From positions 1 through 64,000 of the forward strand of contig NDWX01000003.1 of NCBI GenBank assembly GCA_002855745.1: DNA of 64,000 nt, given 5' to 3'. Shown piece after piece: positions 24,147 to 26,893 of this stretch. The notes under the pieces were generated by a model that worked only from the letters and a program-made list of their open reading frames with translations, made no database searches and was not told the origin of the DNA. A program made the translations under genes and the position numbers. Numbering within the stretch: the first letter of the stretch is position 1; each line of letters begins with the position of its first letter. Source of the stretch: Thermofilum sp. NZ13. Lineage in GTDB: Archaea; Thermoproteota; Thermoprotei; Thermofilales; Thermofilaceae.

Positions 24147-24311
24147 GGAAATCAGACTTGTCACCATTCTTCACCTTTTCGGCCGCGCCTGGCACATTTA
24201 CCCCTTCACTGATCCGGGGCCCCCTTTAAGGGTTTTCATGGGCTCCGCGCCTTCGGCCAACCCCGCCAGCTTGGGCTGTGCGGCGGGGCCCTGCCTCGGC
24301 GCCTCTTCGCC

Positions 24312-25775
24312 TCATCGCGCCGCGCGCGGCACCCGGCGGGCGGCCGTGTGGCCGTGCCGGGAACTGAGGCCTGCTGGCCTTTCTCTGGTGCCGTGGGTCG
24401 AGGCTCTGGGGTGCTGGCTGAGCCACGCGCTCAGAGCCTGGAGGTGCTTTTCTGCTCTGCATGCTTTTAGGAAGAACTTCGCGGCGTTGTAGCTTGCTGC
24501 CCAGTCCCTGGTCCACTCCAAGCCACATTTAGGGCAACGGTAGTAGCGCTTCCTCAGCTCTACTCCCCGCGAGCCGCAGAGGGGGCACTGCTTCCCGCTG
24601 ACGTTGTTCTCCGGCTGGAACCACTTGGCGCCCTCGTACCAGGCCATGTTCTCAAGCCTCTCCGCCACTCTGAGCAGCGTTCTCTGTAGCTTCGTTCCCC
24701 TCAGGGACTCGGCCCGGGGCACATCCGCAACGAGTACGACGGTGTAGCCCCAGTCCCGCAGCTTTCTCACAAGCTCTCTCAGCTCCCTGAGCACGCCCCT
24801 GACCCAGTCGTTGTTGAGCTTCCTCACTTTCCTCGACGCCTGCCCCGCTACTCTCTCAGCCCTCTCCGGCGTTAGGTTCATCTTCACTCTCAGCCTCTCG
24901 GCGAGCCTCAGTGCCTTCTCCACAGCGGAGCCTCTCCCTTCTCTCTGCAGCCTCCTGACGTTCCTCCTCAGCTTGAACCTCTCTACGGCTCGCTCCCAGC
25001 TCTTAACCTCGGAGTAGCTGGTCATGATTGCTGCCAGGAGCCGTAGCATTGTGGTGTTGGGAGGCTTAAAGACGCGCTGAGCTACCAGCTTGGCTTCGCT
25101 GTCGAAGGCGAAGACCATCAGGTAGAGCCCGTGCGAGCTGTTCACGTCCACCGCTATGACAGCCAGCCTGCCCTCTCCGTCCCACCACGCCTGCTTCACC
25201 TTGCGGTGAGCCACCAGCCTCAGCCTACCCTTTGCGGTGAGCTGCAGCGTCAGCTTAACGTCCTCGAAGCACTGTATGTCCTCAAGCACTGCTCTGATCA
25301 AGGACGGCTTCAGCCTTATTGCAACGCCTGCGCTACTAATGCGTAGCCTGCCCCTGGAGGCGTCAAGCACCGCAACGGCAGCGGTGTTGCCGTGGAGCAC
25401 CTCGCCGTCCTTGACCACCTTGACGATCAGCGGCACCGGCGGCGGAGTGAACCTGCTGCGAAGCTTCGACTTCTCCCTAGCCTCCGCGAGTATCTTGCAC
25501 CACTCCGCGGCGTACCAGAACAGCCCCTTCGGTAGCCCAGACGTCTTTGAGGCCTCTTCTATCAGCTCTCTGCCGAACCTCTCCGGCTTCTTTCTGAACG
25601 CGTCGCCGTACATCCTCTCGAGCTCCTCGCTGGCCCGCTCAACGGCAAGGGTGATGTCGGAGTAGAGCTTTCGGAGCCGAAGCCTCAGCTCCCTGCTCGC
25701 CTTTACCTCCCAGACCCTGTAGGCGTCAATCGGCTCCTTGCGCTTCCCGCCATCCTCACCATTCCCTCTGCTCAC
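24312..25775 (-). CDS. tnpB: TnpB-family (IS200/IS605 OrfB-like) protein
   Basis: This is about 487 residues from a GTG at 25775, preceded by a strong GGAGGTG ribosome site. TnpB is the RNA-guided nuclease of IS200/IS605-type elements. RuvC-I is LAVIAVDVNSSHG (Asp present). A zinc ribbon follows, with CPLCG and CPKCG pairs, and RuvC-III is RDWAASYNAAKFF (Asp present). At RuvC-II, where IED is usual, it reads VVLVADVPRAES, so the catalytic Glu seems replaced or moved. The last 50 residues are low-complexity and Arg/Ala/His-rich, running into GC-rich DNA where a guide RNA would be expected. No TnpA is adjacent. Confidence 0.85.
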   Translation of the reverse strand: MSRGNGEDGGKRKEPIDAYRVWEVKASRELRLRLRKLYSDITLAVERASEELERMYGDAFRKKPERFGRELIEEASKTSGLPKGLFWYAAEWCKILAEAREKSKLRSRFTPPPVPLIVKVVKDGEVLHGNTAAVAVLDASRGRLRISSAGVAIRLKPSLIRAVLEDIQCFEDVKLTLQLTAKGRLRLVAHRKVKQAWWDGEGRLAVIAVDVNSSHGLYLMVFAFDSEAKLVAQRVFKPPNTTMLRLLAAIMTSYSEVKSWERAVERFKLRRNVRRLQREGRGSAVEKALRLAERLRVKMNLTPERAERVAGQASRKVRKLNNDWVRGVLRELRELVRKLRDWGYTVVLVADVPRAESLRGTKLQRTLLRVAERLENMAWYEGAKWFQPENNVSGKQCPLCGSRGVELRKRYYRCPKCGLEWTRDWAASYNAAKFFLKACRAEKHLQALSAWLSQHPRASTHGTRERPAGLSSRHGHTAARRVPRAAR

Positions 25776-25981
25776 GCTCCCACCTCCAGGGAGCCTGGCT
25801 CGCTGCGCCCCGAGCCCTCCCTGCGCTTCAGCCCCACACTCCACTGCGCTACGCGGCCTTATATCCCTGCGCCGAAAATAAACGCCGAAAGTGAAAACGC
25901 ATGAAACAAGGAAGTAGTTATGCTGGCTCAGTGCGGCTGTAACCGTTTCTCTCACTGAGAAGGCTCTCTGGGTGCTCTCGT

Positions 25982-26137
25982 TTGAGGGCTAGGAGGGAGG
26001 AGGGCAGGCTGGCTTTGGCGCTGGTGAGGTGCGCCTTCTACGGCTACTGCGGTGACAGGGTAGTCGAGGAGCGCGGGGACCTCCTGGAGGCTCTAGGCGA
26101 GCTCCACTCCTCTTTCCCGGATAAGCCTGCTAAGTGA
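25982..26137 (+). CDS. Possible 51-residue small protein
   Basis: A TTG-started frame encodes about 51 residues with codon use like real genes here. It includes ALVRCAFYGYCGDRVVEERG and a C-terminal acidic helix LLEALGELHSSF. It lies between the tnpB promoter and the SWIM-like gene, in the part of module A missing from copy B. No family was recognised. The 25776-25981 segment to its left holds the tnpB upstream region and nothing else that I can name. Confidence 0.3.
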   Translation: MRARREEGRLALALVRCAFYGYCGDRVVEERGDLLEALGELHSSFPDKPAK

Positions 26138-26172
26138 TTCTACAGGGCCACGTACAGGCTTTGGCTGGGAGG

Positions 26173-26382
26173 ATGGAGAAAGTTAGCGTGGAGCACTGGC
26201 TCGTGAAGGGGCTGCCCGAGTTGGGCGACACCTACCCCTGGTACAACGTCTGGATAAGCGATGGAAAATATAGGTGCGACTGCCTCTTCAGGGCCTACGG
26301 CTACGTGAGGAGGGCGAGGATATACACGCACATAGCGACGGTCATGCTACACCCGAGGCAGCTCAGGCTCTGCGCCAAATGA
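26173..26382 (+). CDS. Small SWIM-like zinc-finger protein, one ligand missing
   Basis: This is a 69-residue protein from the ATG at 26173. YNVWISDGKYRCDCLFRAYG followed by IYTHIATVML follows the SWIM pattern CxC-xn-CxH, but the third Cys is Tyr here. SWIM domains bind DNA or proteins. Its 3' end overlaps the convergent winged-helix gene by 20 nt. A broken copy is at 50262-50450, where the same Cys is also absent. Either this is a diverged subfamily or the gene is decaying. A longer frame to 26134 is open but has no better start. Confidence 0.5.
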   Translation: MEKVSVEHWLVKGLPELGDTYPWYNVWISDGKYRCDCLFRAYGYVRRARIYTHIATVMLHPRQLRLCAK

Positions 26383-26676
26383 GCCTCAAGGCGGCCTCGC
26401 CGCACATCAGCTCCTCAGGGCTGTAGCCGAGCAGCAAGAGGAGGCCGCAGGCACGCTCCGCCAGGTAGACGTAGCGCGTGTCGCCGACCACAACTTCTTT
26501 GACGAAGCCCGCTGAGCGGAGCCTCTCCAGCGCCGAGGCGATGTACCTCGAATTCCTTGTGCCGAAGGCTTTGGTGACGGGTCTCGGCTGCCTTAGGCGC
26601 CACAGCGTCCTTACAAGGCCGGTAAGCTCGAGCCACTCGCGACGCAGCCCCAGACCTCCCTGTCTACTTCGACCAT
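26363..26676 (-). CDS. Winged-helix HTH protein, module copy A, with apparent -1 frame break
   Basis: The domain is TGLVRTLWRLRQPRPVTKAF, then NSRYIASALERLRSAGFVKEVV and VYLAERACGLLLLLG, a winged-helix layout of about 95 residues. A TATA box at 26700-26705 predicts a leaderless start at ATG 26676. That frame reads MVEVDREVW and then leaves the domain frame at a GGGG run near 26650. A -1 step there joins the two parts smoothly (EVWGLRREWLEL). The copy at 50455-50756 has the same step. The uninterrupted domain frame alone is open as far as 26821. Confidence 0.6.
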
Positions 26677-26699
26677 CACAGCAACGGGCGGGGATAGGG

Positions 26700-26723
26700 T
26701 TATAAGCGCTCACACATGCTGTG
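26700..26723 (-). promoter_or_regulatory. TATA box and inverted repeat upstream of wHTH copy A
   Basis: TTATAA at 26700-26705 (same on both strands) is followed on the plus strand by CACACATGCTGTG (26711-26723), with CACA/TGTG arms. On the minus strand the repeat sits just upstream of the TATA box, where an activator or self-repressor would bind. Copy B has the same arrangement with longer arms. Confidence 0.45.
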
Positions 26724-26893
26724 CCGGCTAAGAGCCTGAGCTTTGCAAGCGGTGATCGAAAATCTCTGCTCCCAGCCCTCTCAAACTCCACCGGAAGCGA
26801 GGGAAGATGCAGGTCGAACACGGGAAGAAACTAGGGAAAAATTTAAAAAGCGCCATTGCTATCATCATCTGAGGAAGAATAGCGGGAAAGGAG

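What the first reader, a model, noticed from the sequence alone, without database searches (positions are those of the whole stretch)
24312..25775. TnpB-like protein lacking the usual RuvC-II glutamate
RuvC-I and RuvC-III aspartates and the four-Cys zinc ribbon are intact, but the RuvC-II strand reads VVLVADVPRAES where an IED-like motif with catalytic Glu is expected. The Glu may have moved four residues downstream (PRAES), or the protein may bind RNA and DNA without cutting. There is no TnpA next to it.
Basis: partly seen in the sequence, partly recalled or inferred. Interest (0 to 1): 0.5.

Follow-up and report, generated by a model that had tools for sequence, protein, structure and literature searches.

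The report
TnpB-like gene with altered active site
A mobile DNA element of a heat-loving archaeon carries an RNA-guided, TnpB-like protein whose DNA-cutting site has an aspartate where its known cousins have a glutamate, together with a matching guide RNA, and its copies have spread although no known transposase of the usual two kinds was found in the genome; that makes it a good test of how far this enzyme's active site can be rearranged.

Summary
On the minus strand (25775..24312) an intact 487-aa TnpB/Cas12f-like protein has RuvC-I D210, RuvC-III D424 and the four-Cys ribbon, but RuvC-II reads VVLVADVPRAES, with no Glu before the Asp. The residue before D351 is hydrophobic in 21 of 21 representatives. 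So D351 is the most constant RuvC-II acid, with E356 and E389 as possible helpers.

The gene lies in a 2.7-kb mobile element (24181-26861). Its 3' end is a conserved, covarying RNA (about 24181-24366) that stops sharply at flanking DNA, as an omegaRNA scaffold plus guide would. A same-species genome has this site empty, and has an exactly empty site for an element without tnpB. Neither Y1 nor serine transposase was found in the own genome, nor Y1 in the same-species one.

Most likely it works like TnpB, as an RNA-guided nuclease with an altered RuvC-II acid. Binding without cutting is the main rival: Cas12m2, with Asp for the Glu, does not cut dsDNA. Active-site geometry and cleavage could not be tested here.

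The parts
24181..26861 (-). whole mobile element, left end (LE) at 26861, right end (RE) at 24181
   Evidence: similarity among copies stops sharply at both ends; same-species genome G211 has the two flanks 23 bp apart with no element
26784..26861 (-). left end, TAGCAATG...
   Evidence: 32 DNA matches in the own genome at E 1 or better; 28 left ends aligned, sharp border
26363..26821 (-). small ORF with winged-helix look, next to LE
   Evidence: ORF; related ORFs in other copies; no Pfam match over cut-off and no PHROGs match; 'winged helix' is my reading of the sequence
26134..26382 (+). small ORF resembling a SWIM zinc-finger protein (CxC..CxH), degenerate here (third Cys is Tyr)
   Evidence: ORF; longer related ORFs with CDC..CTH in other copies; no Pfam match; the name SWIM is recalled and comes from no call
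24312..25775 (-). TnpB-like protein, 487 aa, GTG start
   Evidence: PF07282 36 bits, cut-off 26.3; Foldseek/VIA matches to TnpB and Cas12
25146..25148 (-). codon of D210, RuvC-I aspartate
   Evidence: 76 of 77 clade ORFs
24723..24725 (-). codon of D351, the most conserved RuvC-II acid
   Evidence: 76 of 77 clade ORFs; 12 of 12 at 40% clustering
   Evidence: 65 of 77 clade ORFs; 17 of 21 at 60% clustering
24609..24611 (-). codon of E389, 8 residues before the first ribbon Cys
   Evidence: Glu (11) or Asp (2) in 13 of 13 own copies; Glu at this spacing in 12 of 21 clade representatives
24504..24506 (-). codon of D424, RuvC-III aspartate
   Evidence: 76 of 77 clade ORFs
24181..24366 (-). omegaRNA-like scaffold, overlapping the 3' end of the gene
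   Evidence: 27 copies aligned; 97.1% of 837 pair cells paired, covariation 0.246 against 0.110 in shuffles and 0.097 or less when slid; no Rfam match over gathering score
24161..24180 (-). expected guide: first bases of flanking DNA after the scaffold
   Evidence: no conserved sequence from the third base after GCGCGG in 30 right ends; guide length assumed from known TnpBs

Best explanation
It is the RNA-guided protein of a mobile element in an archaeon of the Thermofilales (placed by a named relative of the same family). It belongs to a clade of TnpB-like proteins of the Thermoproteota that lack the canonical RuvC-II Glu and keep D210-D351-D424, probably completed by E356 (or E389). Shown by sequence: the gene, its clade-wide acids, a covarying 3' RNA that ends at the element border, movement within the species, purifying selection. 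Inferred: the protein binds this RNA, uses the flanking DNA as guide, recognises the site left empty when the element leaves, and cuts it, so that repair copies the element back, as proposed for TnpB. Not known: which acid holds the second metal ion, the TAM, and what enzyme moves the element.
For: PF07282 over its cut-off. AF2 model whose best PDB matches are Cas12f and TnpB. D210/D351/D424 76 of 77 each; N212 20 of 21 and each ribbon Cys 21 of 21 representatives. Median dN/dS 0.265 over 78 pairs of 13 copies. omegaRNA-like RNA in 27 copies with covariation; similar RNA after genes of another species, G002; other sharply ending conserved 3' stretches after 8 of 9 TnpB2 genes and, less clearly, after seven genes of family f9. 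Guides differ between copies. Empty sites in the same species. A role of TnpB in keeping the transposon is proposed in the abstract of PMC10278001 (listing).
Against: No cleavage data. Cas12m2, with Asp at the RuvC-II position (and His in RuvC-I), does not cut dsDNA (PMC10442227, passages). E356 is not Glu in 12 of 77 clade ORFs (Asp in one) and Glu at C-8 is absent in 9 of 21 representatives, so neither is a universal substitute. No clear TAM in 28 left flanks. The model is weakest just where it matters (residues 351-360 pLDDT 64, 361-370 72), and its coordinates are not given, so distances to the metal site could not be measured. The number of pairs with changes on both sides (8) is not above shuffles (143 of 500 as high).
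Confidence: 0.6

Rival explanations
1. Nuclease-dead, DNA-binding TnpB-like protein (like TldR or Cas12m2): it binds the guide RNA and the target but does not cut, so it silences or blocks rather than cleaves.
For: Canonical Glu absent in the clade. Cas12m2, whose triad is His-Asp-Asp, binds one Mg and does not cut dsDNA; its RuvC-II Asp485 is too far from metal B (PMC10442227 passages).
Against: D210 and D424 stay in 76 of 77 ORFs. TldRs are described as inactivated and often domesticated (PMC13418256 passages), whereas this gene is multicopy, mobile, and its copies have different guides, which suits donor-site cutting better than fixed repression.
Confidence: 0.25
2. Ealt-type enzyme: the working Glu sits just before the zinc ribbon (E389), as in Fanzor and Ealt TnpB, and E356 is structural. 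(A sub-case of the nuclease reading.)
For: Glu/Asp at C-8 in 13 of 13 own copies; Glu in 12 of 21 representatives. The best solved-structure profile match is a Fanzor2 (9b0l, E 2.5e-6).
Against: Ealt lies six residues before the ribbon (PMC10711439 passages); here seven residues lie between. The Glu is absent in 9 of 21 representatives; four of six G002 copies have Arg there.
Confidence: 0.15
3. A decaying transposon gene without function.
For: 5 of 14 near full-length copies have a stop in the matched stretch. Many tnpB-less copies exist.
Against: dN/dS 0.19-0.37 in all 78 pairs. The window copy is intact. RNA pairs hold in 97.1% of cells. Insertion differences within the species.
Confidence: 0.05

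Closest known systems
TnpB of IS200/IS605 and IS607 (e.g. ISDra2 TnpB, ISFba1 TnpB)
   Same: fold, zinc ribbon, RuvC-I and RuvC-III Asp, 3' structured RNA overlapping the gene, guide expected from flanking DNA
   Different: RuvC-II Glu absent (Asp one place on); no TnpA beside it or found in the genome; far below the NCBIfam guided_TnpB cut-off (22 of 100 bits)
Ealt TnpB and Fanzor (PMC10711439, PMC10432273; passages seen)
   Same: canonical Glu lost, a Glu shortly before the zinc ribbon in many members, Asp-x-Asn in RuvC-I like D383/N385 of SpuFz1, copies without the gene ('ghosts') in the genome
   Different: Glu at C-8 and not universal; D351 nearly invariant; RuvC-I DVN, neither DPG nor D-hydrophobic-G
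Cas12m2 (PMC10442227; passages seen)
   Same: Asp in place of the RuvC-II Glu
   Different: RuvC-I is His there, Asp here; Cas12m2 is a CRISPR effector, this one sits in a mobile element with a flank as expected guide
TldR nuclease-dead repressors (PMC13418256; passages seen)
   Same: TnpB-like protein with altered active site and guide RNA
   Different: many TldRs are domesticated; here mobile, multicopy, with different guides and the two outer aspartates kept

Membership tests
canonical TnpB | C-terminal TNB/zinc-ribbon domain PF07282 over gathering score | tested here: met
   36 bits, cut-off 26.3
canonical TnpB | TnpB/Cas12 fold with RuvC | tested here: met
   AF2 model, RuvC part mostly pLDDT 80-93; Foldseek 8iaz E 1.0e-7, 8h1j 7.6e-7, TM by query 0.33-0.34; VIA 8h1j Z 12.3 over 312 residues, rmsd 8.8
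canonical TnpB | RuvC triad D-E-D with Glu on the RuvC-II strand | tested here: not met
   A350-D351; residue before D351 hydrophobic in 21 of 21 clade representatives
canonical TnpB | NCBIfam guided_TnpB score cut-off | tested here: not met
   22 bits, cut-off 100
canonical TnpB | omegaRNA at 3' end with guide from flanking DNA | tested here: met
   by sequence and covariation only; expression and binding not testable here
canonical TnpB | RNA-guided dsDNA cleavage | not testable with these tools
   needs biochemistry
IS200/IS605 element | Y1 HUH transposase TnpA in the element or genome | tested here: not met
   0 matches to PF01797 in the own genome and in the one-contig same-species genome G211 up to E 10
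IS200/IS605 element | insertion without target duplication | tested here: inconclusive
   exact to within one base at one of six sites compared (L137 element); length changes beside the left end at the other five
IS607 element | serine recombinase TnpA | tested here: not met
   0 matches to PF00239 in the own genome; not searched in G211
Ealt TnpB / Fanzor | Glu six residues upstream of the zinc ribbon | tested here: not met
   seven residues lie between E389 and C397; Glu at C-8 in 12 of 21 and at C-7 in 2 of 21 representatives; definition from PMC10711439
Ealt TnpB / Fanzor | DPG or D-hydrophobic-G in RuvC-I | tested here: not met
   DVNSS; definition from PMC10711439
TldR | inactivated RuvC | tested here: inconclusive
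   two of three catalytic acids kept, the third replaced by Asp
TldR | domesticated, outside a mobile element | tested here: not met
   multicopy with empty sites in the same species

The most novel reading that the evidence does not exclude
These elements spread without any TnpA: the only recognisable enzyme they carry is the guide-RNA protein with its D-D-D(+E) RuvC site, so either this protein (perhaps with the small winged-helix or SWIM-like protein) itself drives movement to new sites, or an undescribed transposase acts in trans. A TnpB-like protein would then be the transposition enzyme and not only its guard.
Probability: 0.15. Interest if true: 0.88.

Novelty: new variant of a known kind. 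Interest (0 to 1): 0.55.

Why it matters
TnpB is the likely ancestor of Cas12. An archaeal clade that kept signs of RNA guidance and mobility while replacing the RuvC-II Glu asks whether an Asp, with help from a displaced Glu, can hold the second metal. If it can, the active site is more plastic than the Cas12m2 case suggests; if it cannot, a mobile element is using RNA-guided binding. Some thirty left ends in a genome in which no Y1 or serine transposase was found make the question of what moves TnpB elements directly testable.

Tried and rejected
A trade-off (members lacking E356 have the Glu at C-8 and the reverse) was considered and dropped: at 90% clustering 39 of 62 have both, 15 only E356, 6 only the C-8 acid, 2 neither, and independence predicts about 2.2 with neither. 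The regex itself required the Asp and put L015 and L017 wrongly among 'canonical'; one search was made without asking for any residue. A TAM was looked for in 28 left flanks: only G at -1 (22 of 28), which the exact empty site shows to belong to the element, and a weak C at -2 (15 of 28). Rfam gave one chance match far below its cut-off. PADLOC gave weak Cas12u4 and Cas12f matches to the C-terminal part (best E 1.3e-5) and PHROGs a transposase (E 7e-6). Viral contigs gave one relative, L174, in five scans; genome contigs gave one, L163, Thermofilales archaeon RSNS8. One same-genus genome (G005) has a Y1_Tnp; its locus L156 shows neither our left end nor our RNA. Papers: the rows listed by searches showed no report of this clade; the library is partial, and the PNAS 2023 TnpB census, which from memory reports rearranged catalytic sites in several TnpB branches, is not held, so this clade may be in it.

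Active-site geometry: AF2 was run, but the tool returns no coordinates, so no distances. The second AF2 job was not used. The tree separates 24 clade rows from ten canonical-labelled rows (95/97; two of the 36 rows chosen were dropped for lack of the ribbon pattern), with long-branch warnings; one of the ten (L203, minus strand) looks Ealt-like.

Full report
OBSERVATION. The ORF 24312..25775 lies on the minus strand, starts with GTG after a GGAGGTG, and is intact (487 aa). PF07282 (TNB, zinc ribbon) matches at 36 bits against a cut-off of 26.3; NCBIfam's guided_TnpB reaches only 22 of 100 bits. D210, D424 and the four cysteines are present. RuvC-II reads VVLVADVPRAES: A350-D351, no Glu-Asp.

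COPIES. In the own genome (1.88 Mb, 98.94% complete, 33 contigs) 14 copies align over at least 450 of 487 residues: the window's own and 13 at 68-77% identity; 9 of the 14 have no stop in the matched stretch, 5 have one. A second subfamily in the same genome ('TnpB2', nine loci fetched) is 33-42% identical over the C-terminal part. Of 101 genomes searched with the protein (own and 100 relatives), 21 matched at E 1e-5 or better. Of 349 genomes of the phylum searched with profile A7, 115 matched at 1e-8, but the weak matches include ordinary TnpBs. The one named genome hit is a Thermofilales archaeon, whose contig has the length of one of G013, a genome of the window's own family; hence the placing.

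THE ACIDS. Thirteen near-intact own copies (of the 14; L002, split by a stop, left out) keep D210, D351, E356 and D424 in 13 of 13, and Glu (11) or Asp (2) at 389; median dN/dS over their 78 pairs is 0.265, range 0.19-0.37. All ORFs held were then scored with profile A7 without asking for any residue: 77 distinct ORFs score over 150 bits and have letters at the three positions. D210 76, D351 76, D424 76, E356 65 of 77; at 90% clustering (67) 66, 66, 66 and 55. At 60% clustering (21): D351 20, E356 17, Glu at eight before the first ribbon Cys 12, N212 20, each ribbon Cys 21, and the residue before D351 is V, I, A, M or L in all 21. A tree of 34 C-terminal stretches puts 24 clade rows on one side of a 95/97 branch from ten canonical-labelled rows, with long-branch warnings. 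So the loss looks old and clade-wide. D351 is the most constant acid, E356 next.

STRUCTURE. An AF2 model (6 rows, four of them pieces of one gene) has mean pLDDT 69. By blocks of ten, residues 201-450 lie at 79-93 except 351-360 (64) and 361-370 (72), the stretch just after D351. Strand 344-351 ends at D351 and helix 362-380 follows. Foldseek: Cas12f 8dzj E 1.2e-8, ISFba1 TnpB 8iaz 1.0e-7, ISDra2 TnpB 8h1j 7.6e-7, TM-scores by query only 0.32-0.34; VIA Z 12.3 to 8h1j, rmsd 8.8 over 312 residues. In the profile alignment, D351 falls on the Asp after the canonical Glu (9yyg; my reading). No coordinates are given, so which acid reaches the metals is open. Cas12m2 is the caution: its RuvC-II Asp485 is too far from metal B and the enzyme does not cut dsDNA, though its RuvC-I is also changed and restoring DED did not restore cutting (PMC10442227, passages).

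THE RNA. Downstream of the gene, overlapping its last codons, the 16 copies aligned share a G+C-rich stretch that ends sharply. Twenty-seven copies (of 34 right-end matches; seven short or odd ones left out) give a consensus with 31 pairs. 97.1% of 837 cells pair; covariation 0.246 against 0.110 +/- 0.009 in 500 shuffles and 0.041-0.097 with slid partners. Against this, the number of pairs with a change on both sides (8) is not above shuffles (143 of 500 as high), and related sequences can beat shuffles without structure, as the tool warns. The window copy alone folds at z -2.4. A helix of 8 pairs, mostly invariant, closes the 3' end. In 30 right ends (four of 34 lacked the anchor; one of the 30 was mis-anchored by my pattern) the sequence is fixed to GCGCGG, C at +2 in 28 of 30, and without majority from +3, apart from G at +11 in 18 of 29; the flanks are all different by eye. 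The profile of this RNA also matches downstream of three of six G002 loci at E 1 or better (the values were cut in print), and five G002 copies aligned share a stretch ending at CGGCGCGG; their proteins are 37-39% identical to ours. Different conserved 3' stretches follow 8 of 9 TnpB2 genes and, less clearly, seven genes of family f9. Rfam has no match over threshold. Expression is not shown.

THE ELEMENT. Borders are at 26861 (left end) and 24181. Besides the gene it holds a small winged-helix-like ORF and, on the other strand, a SWIM-like ORF that is degenerate in the window. In the own genome 47 stretches match the RNA's DNA (40 of 54 candidates scored) and 32 the left end, at E 1 or better; several elements have ends and RNA but no tnpB. 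In G211, a one-contig genome of the same species, the window's flanks (96% identical) lie 23 bp apart: the site is empty, with about 13 bp that the window lacks. Eight more joints were tested. The tnpB-less L137 element has an exactly empty site (flanks 98-100%). L079 and L080 are empty, with 26 and 64 bp of left flank missing in G211 (L079 at 84-92% identity); L071 and L072 have no element but 115 and 482 bp of other DNA; L081 and L139 are occupied in both; L155 is rearranged.

WHAT MOVES IT. Y1_Tnp: 0 in the own genome, 0 in G211 even at E 10, 0 in G002 and G013, which carry many copies; 5 of 41 genomes searched had one, G005 of the same genus among them. Resolvase PF00239: 0 in the own genome; not tested elsewhere. 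Absence of these two families does not exclude another transposase or a recent loss.

READING. Different flank guides, mobility, kept aspartates and maintained RNA fit a working TnpB-like system that cuts the site it left. Clade-wide absence of the Glu and the Cas12m2 precedent keep the binding-only reading alive. Membership: it works like TnpB, but two tested features of canonical TnpB elements (RuvC-II Glu, TnpA) are not met, so I file it as a TnpB-like variant clade. Rearranged TnpB sites are known (Ealt: PMC10711439, passages), so it is a new variant of a known kind.

Noticed in passing
L137 14651-16091, L146, L147, L149, L153, L154: Elements or element remnants with the omegaRNA-like stretch (some with left end or winged-helix ORF) but no tnpB match, resembling the 'ghost' elements described for SpuFz1.
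   Followed up: partly
six insertion sites compared with G211 (L069, L071, L072, L079, L080, L137): The right border is precise or nearly so, but beside the left end five of six sites show length differences of about 13 to 482 bp between filled and empty alleles; this may be a feature of the insertion mechanism or later change.
   Followed up: partly
alignment A6: The middle of the omegaRNA-like stretch exists in two alternative forms (GAGGCG..GGCGCCGAGG and GAGGGG..GCCCGCGGCG), combined with different 5' variants, as if modules recombine.
   Followed up: no
L082 4455-6393: A TnpB2 gene lies behind the same kind of left end and winged-helix ORF as the window's family, while TnpB2 genes have a different 3' RNA-like stretch: two guide systems may share one left module.
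   Followed up: partly
window 26134-26382 (+), L214 5657-6097: SWIM-like small protein (CDC..CTH), convergent with the winged-helix ORF, found in several copies; no Pfam match for either, no PHROGs match for the L214 one.
   Followed up: partly
L174 4216-5340: A viral contig (IMGVR_UViG_3300026625_000045) carries a relative with DVPDDNS: Asn at the E356 position.
   Followed up: no
G033: One f9-family genome gave 123 first-look candidates for the clade profile, a possible large expansion.
   Followed up: no
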